64,000 nt of DNA from Clytia hemisphaerica (Eukaryota; Cnidaria; Hydrozoa; Leptothecata; Clytiidae): positions 372,001 to 436,000 of the forward strand of contig CACVBU010000819.1 of NCBI GenBank assembly GCA_902728285.1. Direction: 5' to 3'. The notes beneath the pieces were generated by a model. That model was not told the DNA's origin and made no database searches. It worked only from the letters and a program-made list of their open reading frames with translations. Of this stretch, positions 11,221-61,880 are shown piece after piece. The first letter of the stretch is position 1. The number at the start of each line of letters is the position of its first letter. Both the position numbers and the translations under genes were made by a program.

Positions 11221-12429
11221 GTTTGGGAATCAATATATGTTTTGGTACAGTGCAGAAAAAATTTAAGGAAAATTGTAACACACCGTCACATTCAAGAATG
11301 AGAAAAGAACTTTTCCTTTTTCCTTTCCTGTTTTTTTTTTTTTTTGAATGAAAACGATCATATCAGGGTTCTATGAAGTAAAACTCTTTATGACTGGCTT
11401 GACATAACATAAAAATCTGGAAAATAAGCTCCATAGCTCTAAACTATTCTGAAACAATTCCATGTTTTGCTATGAGATGATGGTGCTGAATGAAAACTGC
11501 CACTGCTTTACTTTATACCAGTCGTCCACTATCCAAAATCAAACTTTGACCCTTGTAGAATTTTAATTTTCATAACAAAAATATTTCGAATATTACAGAC
11601 CCGAATAGAAAACCGAACAAGGGCTAACTTGCCGAATGTCGCTTTGGTCATTAAAATTAATCTCTTCAAAACACGTTGAATTCCGGTCAGTACATTAAAC
11701 ATGATTCTCGTTTTGTTTTCTCGGAATTTTCTATGGGAATGAATATCTCCTAAGCATTCGCTAAATCTCCTTTGGTTTTTGTTTTGATTTCGCGCAGCGT
11801 CAGCATAACTTAAATATCCCAATCGCCTTTCCCTTTAAACGGTTGAACCAAATTTAATGTGGTAATAGGTCACAATTTAAATTAATAACCTTTCCTATTG
11901 TCAATACAAGAAAGTTTAGATTGGTAACATAATAGCAGGGACCAACGTAGCATCATCATGCATGTGATTGGTTCGGAAGCAGATAGGACTTAAACTTTTT
12001 TGACAGGGGACCCGCGAATTAAGTCTGGCAAAAACTTTTATTGCCAAAAAACTGACGTTGTAGGCAAATCTCATAACCCTAAAAAATAGGCATAAAATTG
12101 ATGATTTTTCGAAATTGAAATTGACGAAATCAACAAAATAATGAAATTATCGGAGTTACAAGAGTCCTATATACTCTTCTACTATTTACTAGTTTAGTCA
12201 AAAAATTGTGTACACCTTTTTTGGAAAAACCTGATACGTACGTAGATGAGTGCTCCGTGGAGATGGAAAACAGCATCATTTGAATGACTATATCTTTATA
12301 TTTCAAGTTTGAGAAAGAAAATGTTCAGTATGTACAAAGACATCTAGACAAAAATATAGAGCAGTAAACACAAGCTACCAGCGCTAAATAGTTCTAAAAT
12401 ATTTTTTGCATATCGGCTTATAATATATA
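11221..12429. other. spacer between the CXC gene and the precursor gene
   Basis: No supported gene was found. The 97-codon minus-strand open frame at 11529-11822 has no recognisable motif and no clear splice sites; its ATG (MGYLSYADAARNQNKNQRR) is noted only because the first 30 residues look moderately protein-like. A 12-base T run lies at about 11332-11343. Confidence 0.35.
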
Positions 12430-12624
12430 CAGTGGAGTCTCCATAAATCGAACACGCATAAAAGAAGACATAAATTTGTTTGAGAAATTTCGAAATATGG
12501 AGCAAGGTTTATAAGGCATTTTTAACTTGTTCGAGTTAAGAAGACGTTCAATAAACGTTAAGAAGACGTTCAATAAACGTTAAGAAGACGTTCAATAAAC
12601 GTTTGAGTTAAAGAGACTCCACTG
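12430..12624. mobile_element. pogo/Tc1-mariner-type MITE with tandem core
   Basis: The ends CAGTGGAGTCTCCATAA and AGAGACTCCACTG are inverted and flanked by TA on each side. This tip, with 'TCGAA' just inside, is typical of pogo/Tigger-like elements. The core contains three tandem copies of a 22-bp unit (TTAAGAAGACGTTCAATAAA plus CG) at about 12536-12603. A relative is at 43860-44081, and a lone left end (CAGTGGAATCTTTATAA) is at 42443. Confidence 0.8.
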
Positions 12625-12786
12625 TAACATGGATTGAAAAGGGCCGTTTTTGTCTTTATATAGAATGTACAATATATAGTGTTGGCCATAAGCTAGAATG
12701 ATGTGTTTTTTTTAGAGATCTCAGAGAGTCTAAATCAGTAGTTCAGTGCAAAGCTTTGATGAAATTCGAACTAAGAAAATGAGTCT

Positions 12787-13479
12787 TTAGCGACCCCAGA
12801 TACCATCTTGCTCAGCTACTCCATTATTATCAGCCGGCGCTTGTCTTGGTTCATTTTTGTTCTTATTTAACTTACTCAATGATTTCAAATAATTTCGCAA
12901 AAGTTGACGTAAACGATGCGAACTGTAAGTATAGGTACGAATAGCTCTCTTGTCCGCCTCATCCATGTTTACGCCCGCCACCCTTGATTCACGTTCTTCA
13001 ATTATCTTGCGCAAGATATCGACTTTCTGTTGGTTTTCATGTTGCCCAGATCTTCTTTCTTGGTTGGTGTTTACCGAAACGGATTCGCCGATATTGTCCG
13101 ACTCTTGATTATTGCCAAAATCGGATTCATCGTCAATATATAACGGGATTCGTCGTTCATCCCTCTCGTCCATGGCGCTTTTTGTTTTTTGAAGGAAATG
13201 AAAAAAGGGCGGGATTGAATCTTTGAAGAACAAATTGTTAGGCTTAGTAGAGTCGTCACCAACCCTCCAATAGACGGTTGGTATATCTTTACTCTTGGCA
13301 GCGCCATTCCCGCGAACTTTGGTCAATCCAACATGCGTCATCCATAATGGCTGCACACTACCATACCGATATCCAATACCAGGTTGTTGTTCAAGAGAAG
13401 GCCATACATTGGATGAAGGTACAAGGGATTTGGCATTTGTGGTTGCTAGGCAACAAGTAGCAAAGATGACGAAAAGCAT
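12787..13479 (-). CDS. secreted prepropeptide with C-terminal Trp-amide signal
   Basis: The gene has one coding exon of 230 residues. The N-terminus MLFVIFATCCLATTNAKS is a short signal peptide with a likely cleavage after Ala16. A 3' splice site (TTTTATAG) about 25 bases upstream of the ATG suggests a 5'UTR intron. There is no disulphide pattern after the signal peptide. A Lys-Arg site at 177-178 precedes a basic, helix-prone segment (AIRTYTYSSHRLRQLLRNYL, then KSLSKLNKNK). The protein ends exactly in QDGIWGR followed by the stop, and W-G-R is the classic signal for C-terminal amidation after removal of Arg. The predicted product is therefore a 50-residue peptide ending in Trp-amide, or shorter forms if monobasic sites are used. 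Residues 179-201 show an ungapped resemblance to vertebrate PACAP positions 4-26 (I, T, Y, S, R, Y and L in register). This may be homology or chance. Cnidarian Trp-amide peptides (GLWamides) are known but normally occur as many short copies. Function is inferred, not shown. Confidence 0.65.
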   Translation of the reverse strand: MLFVIFATCCLATTNAKSLVPSSNVWPSLEQQPGIGYRYGSVQPLWMTHVGLTKVRGNGAAKSKDIPTVYWRVGDDSTKPNNLFFKDSIPPFFHFLQKTKSAMDERDERRIPLYIDDESDFGNNQESDNIGESVSVNTNQERRSGQHENQQKVDILRKIIEERESRVAGVNMDEADKRAIRTYTYSSHRLRQLLRNYLKSLSKLNKNKNEPRQAPADNNGVAEQDGIWGR

Positions 13480-13896
13480 GATTATATTTTCTATCGGTAC
13501 CAGCCCTATAAAATCAAATTTAAAACAAATTTAAGATTTTGATTTTGTACCATACAGGGGCTACAAATATTACGAAGCAACATTTCATTAAATTAAAGTG
13601 TGTAAAAAATAATATTTGACCTCTTCAAAGATATTTTTTAAATGCACTTATAGATTTTCGCAAATTTTCAGACTTTTCACAAAATGCGCTTGTACTCTGT
13701 AACAACCAGTACAGTGCCTTGTTTGAACAAAGAATGGATACTCTTAAAAGAATTTTCGTTTTTTGGAATTTTATTTGGAATTCTTTTTGAAGATTTTTCT
13801 TAAGAATTTTTTTGGAATTTTCTGAAACACTACATTTTCGCGGTGAAAGGGCGGGTACAAAACATGACAATTTTGAAAACTTCTAAAACAAACACC

Positions 13897-47280: not shown

Positions 47281-49639
47281 AGGCGGGACCAATTTGATTA
47301 GTTGTTTTACGGGCCCGAAATTCCAAAAATCGAAATAAAATTATAATTGATTTTGCTATTACCTTTTATTATTATTATTATTATGATGTATACAAGCTCA
47401 CAGGCCCGAGGTGGACCTCTACGAACCGATTTCTAATTACAATATTAATATGTCAAGTATCTTAGTTGGTGTTTTTCCCACGCTTTGTTTAGGCTTTCTT
47501 ACGACGTAATTTTGGCTGCCATACTGATTGTGCATATTCCAAGTGAGGTCTGACAAAGGTGGTGTACAGAGTACAAAATGCCGAAGGACTCAAGTCGTTA
47601 AAACTTCTTTTGATGACTCCAAGGATTGAATTTGCTTTGTTAACCTGTTTGGATATATGCTCCTCGAAAGTTAGTTCGGAATCGATCAAGATGCCGAGGT
47701 CTTTTTCTTCAAAAACATGTTCAAGCTCATTACCCCCAAGCTGGTATCTGTGTGCATGCTTGATGTTGGCGAATTTACCTATTGTTAAGACATGACATTT
47801 ATCAGGATGGAACGTGAGTAACCAATCCTGAGACCACTTTTCCATTTCATCGATATCTCTTTGTACAACGATAGAGTCTTCTACCGAATCTATAGTCTTC
47901 ACTATTTTCGTGTCATCGGCGAAGAGAAATGCATCCGAAACTACTTTGTCTGGCAAATCATTAATGTAAATGACAAATAGCAGAGGTCCAAGTACACTTC
48001 CTTGAGGAATCCCACTTACGACAGGGTTAGTTGTTTGATTTGGCTGAGTTGACTTTGACCAGCTGCTTGCGATCTGACAAAAACGATGTTATCCAGTTTA
48101 GTAGACTTCCACCTACCCCGTAACATTCCAGTTTTTTCTTTAACCTCCTGTGAGGGACGGTGTCAAACGCTTTTGCAAAATCAAAATAGATGCAATCGAC
48201 AACTTTGCCTTCTGCCATCGTTTCACAACATTGGTCAATGTAGTAAAGAAGTTGAGTGACTGTTGATCGCTTACCAATAAAACCGTACTGTTTTTCAGAT
48301 AAAAGATTTTCTTCCACAAGATGATCCATAATTGCTTTTCGTAGCACTGACTCCATCATTTTGCATACTATAGATGTTAAACTGACTGGACGGTAGTTTA
48401 TGGCTAGGTTGTGAGCACCCTTGTTCTTGTAGATTGGCGTGACATGCGCCATCTTCCAGTCCTCAGGTAATACGCTCTCTTCTAATGTTTTGTTCATGAT
48501 TATCTTCAGCGGTTCTGCAACGAAGTCAACTAGTTCCTTCAGCATCAACGGATGAATCTCATCTGGTCCAAATGATTTGCTGGGGTCAAGCTGCTTGATC
48601 TGTCTTATTATTGTTTCTAGAGAAATTTCAGGGATATCGATCATCGTATCTGTTCTTTTATCAAATGTCGGTAATTGTCCGTTTGGCTCATTCGTAAATA
48701 CACCACAAAATTGCTTTTGTAGGATATTTGCCTTTTCTATGTCTGCATGCTTCAATGATTCTTTGTTGTCCTCCGACTCCAGAAGAGATGCAACTCGGCT
48801 TGTCGACTTCAATTGATTTCTTACATGCGACCAAAATCGCTTCGGGTTGTTCTTTGCCGATCTGCTAATTTCTCGTTCATGGTTTCTACGCGTGCGTCTC
48901 ATTATACTGTTGACTCGGTTTCGCGCCGAAACATATTTTGCTCTATTGAACTCCTTGTCAGCATCCGAAGAATTAATCCACTTCCTATGTAGGCGATCTT
49001 TTATCCTGATTTCATTTCGAATATCTTCCCCTATCGGTATATTTCCTTTTTTCTTCCAAAAGGAATTTCCAACTTCTTTTAGCGGGACGAATCGGCTCTT
49101 TAGATCGTTTAGATCAGTTTTGAACTGTTCCCAGAGCTCACATACTGTCTTTCCGCTTGATGTCGCGATAAAGTCTTGCGTCCAATTAGCCGCTCGAAGA
49201 AAGCGTCGCATTTCCTGGAAGTTAGCTGAATTGTAGGAATACTTTTGGCAACTTGGCTTCTGCTCAGCACAACACTTGAAGTCAAAGACAAGTACACTGT
49301 GGTCACCTTTTCCAAGTGGACTAAGATATTTGAGATTGTTGACTTGGTTATATTCACTGGTTAGAATGAGGTCTACTCTTTTAATTGGTGGTTTTTCCAA
49401 GGTTTTGAGAATTTTATGTTCAATTTTTCATTTCATCCATGAAATCGAGCTTTTTGTGTCTTTTCATTTTCTATTCCGCATTTTTGATATACTAGTACTA
49501 GTTTTTGCTGCCTCGCTGCCTTTTAGGAGATTTTATATGTGAAATTCTACTTTCATTTCTATTTTTAGCCGACCGAACGACCCTCTTTTTACCCTGGGTA
49601 ACTTGGCCCGTAAAACAACAAATTAAATTGGTCTCGTCT
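47281..49639. mobile_element. TA-flanked inverted-repeat element enclosing a LINE
   Basis: The ends AGGCGGGACCAATTTGATTA and the reverse complement of AGACGAGACCAATTTAATTT continue into TTGTTTTACGGGCC on both sides (about 35 bp) and are flanked by TA. Nearly all of the inside is the LINE at 47375-49400. The simplest reading is a small MITE that later received the LINE insertion. Confidence 0.7.
47375..49400 (-). pseudogene. LINE endonuclease-end and reverse transcriptase, frameshifted
   Basis: The minus-strand frame 49400-48027 (457 codons) starts within the end of an APE-type endonuclease (RVDLILTS, GDHSVLVFDF). It continues through the linker into the reverse transcriptase: LDPSKSFGPDEIHP, WKMAHVTPIYKNKG, NYRPVSLTSIVCKMMES, KQYGFIGKRSTVTQLL and YFDFAKAFDTVPHRRL. 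At about 48027-48045 the frame shifts by one base. The second part carries GIPQGSVLGPLLF and the catalytic FADD (DAFLFADDTKIV), then DKCHVLTIGK, LGILIDSELTF and FVRPHLEYAQSVW, and stops at 47489. The 3' end is a noncoding tail ending in an (ATA)n run at about 47370-47385. The 5' part is missing and the last C-terminal portion looks deleted. It is much better preserved than the copy at 30138. CR1/L2/jockey-like; clade not resolved. Confidence 0.9.
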
Positions 49640-52892: not shown

Positions 52893-55800
52893 ATGAAGTT
52901 TCCGATCGCCATCTTTTTGATGGGCGCAACACTGGTTCAAGGTAGGTTTGATTTATAGCCGTAGCAAAAAGGTGTGGTGTAAGTTTGTGGGTTTGACTCC
53001 TAAACCGAGTCAAAGCAAAGATCTCAAAATTGTACTTGATGCTTCTCTGCTTGATAATCAGCACTAAAAGAGAATGGTCAAGGGTAAGTGGAGAAACCTA
53101 GACAAAGAAGTGGTTCCCTTCCTTACCTTCGGATAGACAGCGAAGGAAAGGGGAACTTTTGGGTCAACCTCAAATCAACCTCGCAAACTTAGTTTTACTT
53201 ATGGCCCATCCTTGTTTTTAATCACGATGTTTTCATTGTTTTTCGATGGTGAAAGGTCATTAAGTGAATTCGGTGAGAGGTTTAACCTTTAGAAGCTGGA
53301 AAATAAGAAATGCAAGCAAGCTATTTTAATGACGAAGAAAGATCCATTATCGGTCACATAACCATACATTTATCTCAATCCAGGTCTACTTCACATTTCC
53401 AAATGTAACCCACAAAGCTATGTCAAAGTTGGATGTTTCAAAGATAATATCGTTCCAAAGCGTGCACTGACAACACAACTTTTAAACAGAATGGATCCTC
53501 ACAGTAAGAAGGGTGATGGTCAATTGATCGACCTGAATAATTACGGACAATCATTGAAAGAACTCGTCTGTAGATGCAGTCAACTTGCAAAAGCAAAAGG
53601 CTTTGAATATTTTGCTATTCAATTCTATGGAGAATGTTGGGCAGGTCACCCAAAGGACGCTACGAGACATGGTATCTCCAAAGGAGGATGCGTAGATGCG
53701 AGACTGAAAGATGGAAGTTGTGGTCCAAGATCAACTGAATGCGCTGGAAAATGTGGCGAAAACTTCGTCTACAGAGTCGCTAGTAAGTATATTCCTCCAA
53801 ATGCTAATAATAGTTACTTATAATTTTCCATTCATGCGGGCGGTATTATTGTATCGTTCTTCATTTGAACTTTTCCAGAAAAAATTTGAATATTTTGAAT
53901 ATTGGGTTAATATGGTTATAATATAAACATTTTTGGAAATTTACTCCCCCCCCCTCAAACATTGTGACTTTTGGCAGGTCTGACCCCCCGGACAAGCATC
54001 AGTTGACCCAATGGACAACCAAAATTACCCTCAAACAGAGTAAAATTACCCCCAAACAGAGTAAGTTTACCCCCCGGACAAGGCAAATTTTGTAAATCTT
54101 TCACTACCCCGGACACTATATCCTCCACCTCCCAGAAAGAGCTCTATTTTTACTAAATTTGATAATGAAAATCAAAAATAAAGTTTAAACTAACTAGCCT
54201 CATCTCGGTGAAAAAACAATCAACTGTATAGCTGAAAAATTGATCTTTACGAATGATATGTGACTAGCAACTAGAAACTAGCAATTTGAGTATTAAACTT
54301 TTATCGTAATTTAATTATTCTATTTTCGTTTAACAGAGCCAGTGGACGGCGGATGGAGTTCATGGGGAAAATATGGTGCATGCGTAGGAAGATGTGGTTC
54401 AAAAGGCGTTCAACGAAGATATAGAACTTGTAGCAAACCACGCCCTGTTGACGGCGGTAAACCATGTGTTGGACCCAGGTTCTCTACCAAAACATGCCAG
54501 AAAGCTGCTTGTCCAGGGAAATGGCAAAACTGGTCCTCATGGACACAATGCGTACAAACTAGACAAAGACGCTGTACTGTTAATGGTAAACCAGCTCCCC
54601 AAAGCCAATGTGGTGGAAATCCAACAGAGAGAAGAACATGCCAGAAATGTCAAGGAAACTGGGGAGGTTGGGGTGTTTGGAGTGACTGTGGAACACCAAA
54701 TAAACCCTGTGGTACTGGGTCTAGAGTAAGACGTCGAGTCTGTTTACCTTTTCCTGGATTCCACTGCCCTGGTAAAAGCGAGGAGAGAATATCATGCCAA
54801 CATCAGTGTAAGAAAACGTGTGTTTGGGGTAGATGTAGCAAGTCTTGTGGAGGAGGAATCAGGATCAGAGCCAGGAAATGTGTAGCTGTTGGCACCAATA
54901 TTGTCGTCTCTGGTTGTCCTGGAGTATCTTCCCAACAGGGAGCATGTAATACACAAGTATGTCCAATCTGGATCTGGGGACCATGGAGTCGATGTAGTCG
55001 CACATGTGGCAGCGGTTCCCAAAACAGGGCCCAAATCTGTGTTGTACCTGGAACATCACCGCCTAAGGGAACAACTGGATGTAGTGGCAAAGGAAAAGTT
55101 GAAAGCAAATCATGTTTGATTCGAGGATGTCCTGTCTGGACCCAATGGGGTTCTTGGTCGCCCTGTCCAAAATGCCGCCCATCAGGAACACCTGCTCCAA
55201 AAAGAATCAGACAAAGACGCTGTGTTTATGAAGGATCGAACATCAATGCTGCAGGATGTCAAGGAGCTCGTATTGAGTTTCAAAACTGTATAACATTAAA
55301 CTGTAAGTATTTTTTTCTTGAATTTTTCATAAAGTCTATTTCGAACATTTCTTTTTTCGATCTACAACCGTACCATATAATACAAAGTTTGATAAGTAAA
55401 CAGGAAAACAGATATACATTACAGTTTGGTTAGTTTAAGAACTCACTTATAATGACATAAGGTTATGCGTTTTCCTTCTTAATACATTCTACTACGATTA
55501 AGTATATTGGCACGATATCACACTCTGGCTATATTATTTCCTAGGCGGTCCACTACCATGTTCTGTCAAGTGTTTACCAACAGACATTGAAGGGAAAGTT
55601 TGTGTTCGAAACAACGCCGGTAGAGAATGGACAATGGCTAACGAATGTGCATTTAAACGATTGAGATGTTCCATGCCAGGCCTTACAATGAGACATGGAA
55701 AATGCCTAAGTAAGTCAATTTTTTTTAAGAGATCGAAGATTCCCTCGTCATTATTCAATTCACTTGTTTTAAAATAAGAGTGATATCGTTTGCTTACTCG

Positions 55801-60522: not shown

Positions 60523-60671
60523 GTCTATTTAGCTGTCTAATGATAGTAATTGACTTTCATTGTATAAAAAATAATCTACTGTTTGTCCGTCCTCTAAAGG
60601 AAAGAGCAAGTTTGTTGTGACACTTTCATCATTGTCAGTTGGGACATTCATACTTTCTCGCTGTACAAAAA

Positions 60672-61880
60672 ATGGAAAATATTCAAGTAATAACCATTCC
60701 AGTATGGCTATTACTTTTAACTGCAAACAACAGATTAGTTTTTTCACAATCAATATTGTGTGTGGAGAGAAAAAATATCACCGTCATTCCTCACATTGAT
60801 ATTTACCAGCAATGGAAAGGAGTCGACTGGATAGAAGAATCTATTAAACATCAAAGCATGCAGCTAAGGTACTTAGTAAAAGCTTTACTGGAAACATCTT
60901 GTTTTGAAGTATGGTTTTATTCACCCATTCAAGACCGCTGTATTCTACAAACTGAAGACAACTATGTTCGATTTCTGGAGACAGAATGGTTGGCAATGAC
61001 AAGCACAGACGATAACGACATTTTGAATCTTCTGTCAAATATTCCTCGGAGTAACGATGAAATAGAGCAAACCTTACTGTTTTTCAGTTATTATATTTAC
61101 CCTGAGAAAGAAATAACACATAAATCGATAATCGCAGACAAACTGAAAGTGACACAAGACAAATATAATATCATTTTGTTATGCCAAAAAGGTAACTCTG
61201 TTTTCTGCACCCAAAGTGGAAACTGGTTAGCAAGACAAAAGATAATAAACATTACCTTTAACACGCTATCTTTCAATCCACATCTTCATTCTATTCTATT
61301 GGACCTCATAAACAATCCATCTTACGATTGGCTTCAGAAATATACGAGAAACCAGTACCATTGTCACGTGTCAAACTCAAAGGAGGTTAATATCTTTGTA
61401 TGGTCAATCAATTTCTTAAGACAAAACCAAACTGCTGGCCAGAAAAATGTTGATATGGCTTTTTCAATAGGAATACTACAGAAACAATTTAATTCTTCTG
61501 TCACATTCTACCGCGTATTAGTGGTTGGCGATTGGTCAAGCAAGCCATACTGGGGTCCATACAGTTTAAAATCTTTGGAAAAAGAACCAAGACTTGTACG
61601 GAAGGAAGATCAAAAATCAACAAGCGAAGTTATCAAAGCCATGGATATAAGAGGTATTAAGTTACACATAATCTTTTATAACAAAAGCGTAAAACCAGAT
61701 TTGGGCGCTCTTCCTTTTACATTGGACAATGCAATTATTATTGTTGTAGATGATCACATCGCTGAGTCTCCAGTAATAAACAAAGATGGTACTTTCGTTG
61801 TTTCGCCAGAAGATTTTATGAATCCTTTATTTATTAGAATGCTGTCCAAGAAAATGAACTCAATCATATGTGGAAAGTAA
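60672..61880 (+). CDS. secreted orphan protein, single coding exon
   Basis: ATG at 60672 (AAAAAATGG) opens 402 codons ending TAA at 61880. The N-terminus is a signal peptide (MENIQVITIPVWLLLLTANN, cleavage probably near FSQ-S). The frame is open upstream to a TTG at 60639, and TCATTGTCAG at 60638 could be a 3' splice site of a 5'UTR intron, so the ATG is preferred. The mature part is about 375 residues. It has several Asn-X-Ser/Thr sites (for example NITV, NQTA, NSSV), ten or so scattered cysteines and alternating hydrophobic strands, such as FYRVLVVGDW, IKLHIIFYN and AIIIVVDDH, which recall an alpha/beta (vWA-like) fold. There is no second membrane segment. I recognise no family. Codon use and length make it a real gene. 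It lies between the WD40 last exon (opposite strand) and the palindrome at 61901, only 20 bp after its stop. Confidence 0.75.
   Translation: MENIQVITIPVWLLLLTANNRLVFSQSILCVERKNITVIPHIDIYQQWKGVDWIEESIKHQSMQLRYLVKALLETSCFEVWFYSPIQDRCILQTEDNYVRFLETEWLAMTSTDDNDILNLLSNIPRSNDEIEQTLLFFSYYIYPEKEITHKSIIADKLKVTQDKYNIILLCQKGNSVFCTQSGNWLARQKIINITFNTLSFNPHLHSILLDLINNPSYDWLQKYTRNQYHCHVSNSKEVNIFVWSINFLRQNQTAGQKNVDMAFSIGILQKQFNSSVTFYRVLVVGDWSSKPYWGPYSLKSLEKEPRLVRKEDQKSTSEVIKAMDIRGIKLHIIFYNKSVKPDLGALPFTLDNAIIIVVDDHIAESPVINKDGTFVVSPEDFMNPLFIRMLSKKMNSIICGK

What the first reader, a model, noticed from the sequence alone, without database searches (positions are those of the whole stretch)
12787..13479. Candidate new amidated peptide-hormone precursor, with a PACAP-like core
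Seen: a signal peptide, no disulphide pattern after it, a single Lys-Arg site, a basic helix-prone segment, and a C-terminus that is exactly Gly-Ile-Trp-Gly-Arg before the stop. Known: W-G-R at a precursor end yields a C-terminal Trp-amide, and cnidarian GLWamide precursors instead carry many short copies. Inference: the gene releases one long (about 50-residue) amidated hormone. The stretch after Lys-Arg lines up without gaps with PACAP positions 4-26 at I, T, Y, S, R, Y and L, which is unexpected outside Bilateria and may be convergence.
Basis: partly seen in the sequence, partly recalled or inferred. Interest (0 to 1): 0.72.

Follow-up and report, generated by a model that had tools for sequence, protein, structure and literature searches.

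The report
Candidate jellyfish Trp-amide neuropeptide precursor
A jellyfish gene, most likely from Clytia, appears to encode a secreted precursor that releases one short tryptophan-amide neuropeptide of the familiar cnidarian GLWamide type; its likeness to the vertebrate hormone PACAP is weak and probably chance.

Summary
The open frame is real: 230 aa on the minus strand, a signal-peptide-like start, no later cysteines, and an end ...VAEQDGIWGR-stop. The genome is almost certainly Clytia hemisphaerica, because its GRFamide, pp11 and pp2 precursors match published descriptions. The amidation signal stands.

The PACAP part is not supported. Four other frames of the same 64 kb window match PACAP-27 as well or better. 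Pfam and PDB sequence searches give no secretin-family match. The literal alignment lacks PACAP residues 1-3.

A more economical reading is a cnidarian-type precursor. Cnidarians often cut before Gln next to an acidic residue, so E|QDGIW-GR gives pQDGIWamide, resembling GLWamides such as pQQPGLWamide; pQKHGIWamide (Turritopsis) and pQERIGIWamide (Anemonia) are published predictions. A 16-mer, pQAPADNNGVAEQDGIWamide, after R212 is an alternative. The 50-residue hormone is possible but less likely.

It would be a single-copy Wamide gene, distinct by its peptide from the three GLWamide genes Koch et al. list for Clytia. Expression, peptide and conservation are untested. Supplementary lists, including 36 new Clytia precursors of 2025, could not be read, so priority is unknown. 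Ordinary but useful.

The parts
12787..13479 (-). open reading frame of the putative Wamide preprohormone, 230 aa plus stop
   Evidence: only one match in the genome for the whole protein and for its tail
13432..13479 (-). putative signal peptide, residues 1-16 (cut proposed after ...TTNA)
   Evidence: highest hydropathy window of the protein at residues 2-11; cut site inferred by eye, SignalP not available
13506..13507 (-). candidate splice-acceptor AG (...gattttatAG) 26 nt upstream of the ATG: 5'-UTR intron or trans-splice site
   Evidence: seen in sequence; a T-rich AG also lies 19 nt (pp11) and 9 nt (pp2) upstream of the ATG, less clear in gene 3; inferred, no RNA data
12946..12951 (-). 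Lys-Arg pair (residues 177-178)
12853..12945 (-). basic helix-prone spacer, residues 179-209 (the 'PACAP-like' stretch)
   Evidence: PACAP score matched or exceeded by four other frames of the window (shuffles); helix 174-206 only in a low-confidence model (mean pLDDT 42)
12796..12843 (-). alternative mature peptide pQAPADNNGVAEQDGIWamide (residues 213-228) after Arg212
   Evidence: sequence; inferred processing
12796..12810 (-). preferred mature peptide pQDGIWamide (residues 224-228) after Glu223
   Evidence: sequence; processing rule from published mass spectrometry and precursors
12787..12795 (-). amidation Gly, monobasic Arg and stop codon

Best explanation
The gene encodes a secreted preprohormone of the cnidarian Trp-amide (GLWamide/IWamide) type. 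Shown: the ORF, the hydrophobic N-terminus, and the end E-Q-D-G-I-W-G-R-stop. Inferred: the signal peptide is removed; the terminal Arg is trimmed (carboxypeptidase), and PAM converts the Gly to an amide on Trp. The N-terminus is made either by the cnidarian-type cut before Gln224 next to Glu223, with cyclisation to pyroglutamate (pQDGIWamide), or at Arg212 (pQAPADNNGVAEQDGIWamide). The basic helix-prone stretch and the region upstream of it are spacer. The peptide is released by neurosecretory cells and acts on a receptor in neighbouring tissue.
For: Long open frame, one match in the genome. The last residues fit pQ-x-G-[L/I]-W-GR, as in metamorphosin A pQQPGLWamide; GIWamides are predicted in Anemonia pQERIGIWamide, Turritopsis pQKHGIWamide, Euphyllia and A. 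alata KPKGDAIGIWamide. Mass spectrometry in Nematostella shows cuts N-terminal to Q, often with D/E one or two residues before; DQGRFGKR and EQGRFGKR occur in the Antho-RFamide precursor. Few-copy GLWamide precursors exist: Hydractinia gene 2 and Polypodium, and gene 3 of this genome has a single GLW copy; single-copy LRWamide precursors exist in Hexacorallia. pp2 of this genome contains a GIW sequence, and pp2 and pp11 carry basic or helix-prone spacers as judged by eye. Genome-wide, Q-x-G-[LIMF]-W-G-R-stop occurs 5 times (reversed control 0), and only this one ends a long frame with a signal-peptide-like start. E-Q-x-G-[LIMF]-W-G-x occurs once, here.
Against: Only one copy of the motif. No detectable homology of the rest of the protein to pp2 or gene 3 (shuffle p 0.46 and 0.34; pp11 0.07). 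The GIW of pp2 is followed by Gly-Asp, so it is not itself an amidation site. The single-copy LRWamides lie directly after the signal sequence, not at the C-terminus as here. The reversed-pattern control also found 1 match, so the motif alone, without its ORF context, is not significant in 417 Mb. Coding score is modest and frame 2 wins in 4 of 7 blocks. No transcript, expression or mass data; no cnidarian relatives could be searched, so conservation is untested. Replacing Leu by Met or Ile in GLWamide is reported to abolish contraction activity in an anthozoan, so action on a GLWamide receptor is uncertain.
Confidence: 0.6

Rival explanations
1. One reading: cutting at Lys177-Arg178 releases one 50-residue amphipathic, C-terminally amidated hormone (Ala179 to Trp228-amide).
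For: A KR pair directly precedes a basic helix-prone stretch; the low-confidence model puts a helix at 174-206; only one amidation site exists in the precursor.
Against: The cnidarian amidated peptides met in the passages read here are short. The 50-mer contains Arg212-Gln and Glu223-Gln, both plausible cut sites. A basic helix-prone stretch, judged by eye, also occurs in pp2 of the same genome. No conservation evidence either way.
Confidence: 0.15
2. Not a neuropeptide precursor: another secreted protein, or a different exon structure, in which GIWGR-stop is fortuitous or spliced out (a weak GTATCT donor, seen by eye, lies within the Gly-Ile-Trp codons).
For: No expression data; no homologue found; modest coding score with frame 2 ahead in 4 of 7 blocks; the E-Q-x-G-[LIMF]-W-G pattern occurs no more often than its reversed control (1 each).
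Against: The 247-codon frame exceeds the longest frame of all 60 random windows. It ends precisely in Gly-Arg-stop behind Trp, and the five residues before fit a known neuropeptide family. 7 of 663 frames in the window end in Gly plus basic residue(s), and of these only this one has Trp before the Gly.
Confidence: 0.22
3. A divergent PACAP/secretin-family hormone.
For: Gap-free alignment with 7 identities. Against shuffles of the same segment the ungapped score gives p 0.004 for PACAP-27 alone, and against shuffles of the whole precursor 0.003. Six other proteins tested (pp2, pp11, a shortened gene 3, and the FAM184-like, TSP1 and RT frames) score only 17-27 against 34 here.
Against: p 0.02 by score and 0.31 by identities once nine family members are allowed; whole-precursor shuffles give p 0.10 by identities. 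Three other frames of the window score higher and one ties. No Pfam match to ORF or tail and no secretin-family peptide in PDB at E up to 10, while the PACAP control finds its family. In the genome no Hormone_2 match reaches the cut-off, and this locus is not among the 7 weak ones. The literal alignment lacks PACAP residues 1-3 and has Arg for Phe6. Two papers (passages read) could not find a cnidarian PACAP gene.
Confidence: 0.02

Closest known systems
Clytia GLWamide precursors pp11 and pp2 and the mixed GLWamide/LPMKFamide gene 3 (PMC8638164, section 8 read; located in this genome at C38, C38, C148/C430)
   Same: same genome; hydrophobic start, uninterrupted frame, G-[L/M]-W-G plus basic residue; pp2 also contains a GIW sequence
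   Different: pp11 has three and pp2 two amidated Trp sites, gene 3 one plus KFamide repeats; the GIW of pp2 is followed by Gly-Asp; no detectable homology to pp2 or gene 3, borderline to pp11 (p 0.07); different contig
Few-copy GLWamide precursors of other hydrozoans: Hydractinia gene 2 (pQSPGLWamide), Turritopsis genes 2 and 3 (pQKHGIWamide, pQSTGLWamide) (PMC8638164, section 8 read)
   Same: one or two pGlu...G-[L/I]-W-amide copies per precursor
   Different: precursor sequences lie in supplements that could not be read; orthology untested
As-IWamide pQERIGIWamide and metamorphosin A pQQPGLWamide of sea anemones (PMC7266959, passages read)
   Same: pGlu start, Gly-Ile/Leu-Trp-amide end, short
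   Different: anthozoan; As-IWamide is a prediction from a multi-copy precursor; membership of GIWamides in the GLWamide family is called uncertain there because Leu to Met or Ile abolished contraction activity
PACAP / secretin family (Pfam Hormone_2)
   Same: seven scattered identities; basic helix-prone stretch
   Different: no profile match, no N-terminal His-Ser-Asp, a Trp-amide end; resemblance not above other frames of the window

Membership tests
Cnidarian GLWamide/Wamide preprohormone | signal peptide | tested here: inconclusive
   hydrophobic N-terminal core and small residues at the proposed cut site by eye; no SignalP available
Cnidarian GLWamide/Wamide preprohormone | C-terminal Trp followed by Gly and basic residue(s) | tested here: met
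   ...GIWGR-stop
Cnidarian GLWamide/Wamide preprohormone | G-L-W core | tested here: inconclusive
   G-I-W instead of G-L-W; a GIW peptide is listed under GLWamides by Koch et al. but membership is called uncertain in PMC7266959
Cnidarian GLWamide/Wamide preprohormone | N-terminal protection (pGlu, XP or XPP), often after an acidic residue | tested here: met
   Glu223-Gln224 in sequence; hallmarks; whether pGlu forms was not tested
Cnidarian GLWamide/Wamide preprohormone | several similar copies per precursor (usual, not universal) | tested here: not met
   one copy; exceptions with one copy are published and gene 3 here has one GLW
Cnidarian GLWamide/Wamide preprohormone | expression in neurons and detected amidated peptide | not testable with these tools
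   no expression or peptidomic data held
PACAP/secretin family | match to Pfam Hormone_2 | tested here: not met
   0 families for the ORF (E up to 1) and the tail (E up to 10); PACAP control 49.4 bits
PACAP/secretin family | resemblance to PACAP above background | tested here: not met
   tied 4th of 663 frames in the window; p 0.02 by score and 0.31 by identities over nine family members, though 0.004 for PACAP alone
PACAP/secretin family | receptor-activating N-terminus (His1, Asp3, Phe6; recalled) | tested here: not met
   in the register the KR cut leaves Ala at PACAP position 4 and Arg at position 6
PACAP/secretin family | class B1 receptor in the same species | tested here: inconclusive
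   5 HRM domain matches over cut-off in the genome; adhesion GPCRs also carry this domain (recalled), not resolved

The most novel reading that the evidence does not exclude
Clytia secretes a single long (50-residue) amphipathic C-terminally amidated hormone from this gene, a kind of peptide hormone not met in the cnidarian papers read here, convergent in form with secretin-type hormones though not related to them.
Probability: 0.12. Interest if true: 0.6.

Novelty: new member of a known kind. Interest (0 to 1): 0.27.

Why it matters
If right, a laboratory jellyfish has a further Trp-amide gene with an Ile in the GLW core and one copy. Repeat-counting screens cannot see that type: Koch et al. 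required three processing sites in their script and added TBLASTN to compensate. GLWamides induce larval settlement or metamorphosis in Clytia, and Leu-to-Ile is reported to kill activity in an anthozoan muscle assay. A GIWamide gene would therefore test whether cnidarians have a separate IWamide receptor. It also removes a tempting false lead about PACAP outside Bilateria, where published invertebrate PACAP cDNAs have already been questioned.

Tried and rejected
PACAP/secretin homology: rejected as unsupported, with the contrary numbers given under the rival. One search (PACAP-38 against the genome) returned no candidates, but the tool warns that an empty answer shows nothing.

Paralogues: none for the whole protein (E up to 0.001) or for the tail (E up to 10). 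The whole ORF against the PDB gave one insignificant match, USE1, E 0.78.

Structure: one AlphaFold2 run without an alignment, mean pLDDT 42, too poor for a fold search.

Other places of the Q-x-G-[LIMF]-W-G-R-stop motif (4 of 5): L029 is a 12-codon frame behind a stop, L030/L031 are two places in one tandem repeat, L033 is a short frame; none looks like a precursor. In the PPG-[LIMF]-W-G search 9 places matched, reversed control 1; 3 (L036, L039, L040) are precursors, the other 6 lie in frames of 18 to 62 codons. Two of those six, L037 and L041, read PPG[LM]WGR and could be exon pieces; not followed up.

The two synthetic-repeat searches gave 64 and 52 matches. I printed frames for only part of their loci; besides the GRFamide precursor these were repetitive frames. 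The known pp11 was among the 52.

NCBIfam, Rfam and tRNA scans were empty. The bacterial promoter scan does not apply to an animal gene.

Papers: Takeda 2018 (10.1242/dev.156786) and Chari 2021 (PMC8626072) are not held, so their Che-pp lists were not seen. The full-text search for DGIW strings found 6 papers, none on neuropeptides by title. It covers only the CC0/BY/BY-SA part of PMC and no supplements, so it does not show that the peptide is unpublished. PMC12440616 (section 2.1 and passages read) reports 36 new Clytia precursors in a supplement that could not be opened here. PMC4346854 appeared in a listing only.

I lowered the best explanation from 0.62 to 0.60, raised 'something else' from 0.20 to 0.22, and raised the secretin rival from 0.01 to 0.02 because its nominal shuffle values had been understated.

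Full report
What was checked. The minus-strand ORF 12787-13479 is as described: 230 codons, ATG to TAA, inside a 247-codon open frame. In 60 first-order Markov windows of the same composition the longest open frame was 180 codons. The codon score of frame 0 is +0.07, above -0.17 and +0.02 for the other sense frames, but frame 2 is ahead in 4 of 7 blocks and the training set was nine frames, so this is weak support. Hydropathy peaks at residues 2-11; cysteines are at 9 and 10 only; the sole Gly before a basic residue is in the terminal GIWGR. Dibasic pairs are RR109, RR142, RK157 and KR177, so the Lys-Arg is single but not the only dibasic site.

Which animal. The window lies in a 417 Mb, 951-contig genome. 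That genome has a GRFamide precursor with 17 QWLNGRFG copies and one QLVSGRFG, which are the numbers published for Clytia hemisphaerica (PMC8638164, passage seen). It also has pp11 (QPGNPPGLWGR plus two others), pp2 (QNSPGALGLWGR plus one other amidated site) and two copies of the TPPPGLW/LPMKF gene, as published for Clytia. The LPMKF copy number differs from the published four: it is seven in L039 and six in L040. I therefore infer C. hemisphaerica or a very close relative.

PACAP. The gap-free alignment is real: score 34 and 7 identities at offset -3. Shuffling the same 31 residues gives p 0.004 by score and 0.019 by identities for PACAP-27 alone; shuffling the whole precursor gives 0.003 and 0.10. 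Allowing nine secretin-family peptides gives 0.02 and 0.31. In favour of the likeness, six other proteins tested (pp2, pp11, a shortened gene 3 and three window frames with Pfam matches) scored only 17 to 27. Pfam Hormone_2 does not match the ORF or its tail, while PACAP itself scores 49.4 bits. The tail finds no secretin-family peptide in the PDB at E up to 10, while PACAP finds VIP, GLP-1 and others. In the genome, Hormone_2 has 7 sub-cut-off matches, none at this locus. A KR cut would start the peptide at PACAP position 4. Two papers (passages read) report that no cnidarian PACAP gene could be found; the earlier one says that this raises questions about the reported invertebrate sequences, the Hydra cDNA among them.

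A better reading of the end. Cnidarian precursors use classical basic sites at the C-terminal side but often acidic residues, or a cut before Gln, at the N-terminal side (PMC9545775; PMC11087051, with mass spectrometry; passages read). Read this way, VAE|QDGIW-GR gives pQDGIWamide. That is the pQ-x-[x]-G-L-W-amide frame of metamorphosin-type peptides with Ile for Leu. GIWamides are already predicted in Anemonia, Euphyllia, A. alata and Turritopsis. [quoted passage not shown] A second option is cutting at Arg212 to give a 16-mer starting pQAP.

How special is the motif. Q-x-G-[LIMF]-W-G-R-stop occurs 5 times in the genome (reversed control 0), but only here at the end of a long frame with a signal-peptide-like start. 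E-Q-x-G-[LIMF]-W-G-x occurs once, here, with one match for the reversed control. So the motif by itself is not significant genome-wide; its position in the frame is what carries weight. In the window 7 of 663 frames end in Gly plus basic residue(s), this one included.

Relation to the known Clytia genes. Local alignments to pp2, pp11 and gene 3 give shuffle p of 0.46, 0.07 and 0.34. The best local alignments all end in the shared Trp-Gly-basic motif, and that to pp11 also spans its spacer. All four read as one uninterrupted frame; a T-rich AG lies 26, 19 and 9 nt upstream of the ATG in ours, pp11 and pp2, less clearly in gene 3. pp2 contains GPPGIWG, followed by Asp and so not an amidation site, and a spacer that looks basic and helix-prone by eye. 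Neither GIW nor such a spacer is thus foreign to Clytia Wamide precursors. Koch et al. list three GLWamide genes for Clytia; by the peptides named, this is none of them. A 2025 pipeline adds 36 new Clytia precursors, including another with 'different GLWamides and an RWamide'; its table was not readable, so this gene may be in it.

Verdict. I put 0.60 on a short GIWamide precursor, 0.15 on the 50-residue hormone, 0.22 on something else and 0.02 on a secretin relative. Receptor and function are open. GLWamides act in settlement or metamorphosis of Clytia planulae (PMC12225738, passages), but an anthozoan study cited in PMC7266959 found Met or Ile for Leu inactive in a contraction assay, so a separate receptor is possible. 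Conservation, expression and the peptide itself could not be tested with the collections on hand.

Noticed in passing
window 12428-12626: Short element with 26-nt inverted arms (TACAGTGGAGTCTC...GAGACTCCACTGTA, 85% complementary) enclosing 22-bp direct repeats, just 3' of the gene; looks like a MITE.
   Followed up: partly
L051 (G000:C829:235500-245400): Roughly 8 kb array of a 30-bp unit that reads KR-QQYFRVLY in all three frames of one strand (55, 139 and 23 units counted), with breaks; looks like a precursor repeat at first but behaves like a minisatellite.
   Followed up: partly
L045 (G000:C38:1631000-1640500): The two known Clytia GLWamide genes pp11 and pp2 lie about 3 kb apart on the same strand, suggesting tandem duplication.
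   Followed up: no
L039 and L040 (G000:C148 and C430): Two copies of the mixed GLWamide/LPMKFamide precursor with different repeat content (7 and 6 LPMKF) on two contigs: paralogues or unmerged haplotypes.
   Followed up: partly
L037 (G000:C113) and L041 (G000:C630): Short frames of 18 and 22 codons reading PPGMWGR and PPGLWGR; possibly exon pieces of further Wamide precursors, possibly chance.
   Followed up: no
window 47489-49427, minus strand: Two overlapping frames with reverse-transcriptase (RVT_1) matches, probably one frameshifted retroelement; described only.
   Followed up: no
window 53362-55433, plus strand: Secreted-type exons with a sub-cut-off WSC match and five TSP1 stretches.
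   Followed up: no
window 60621-61880, plus strand: 419-codon open frame without any Pfam match at E up to 1 that starts like a signal-peptide protein by eye; frame ends ...IICGK.
   Followed up: no
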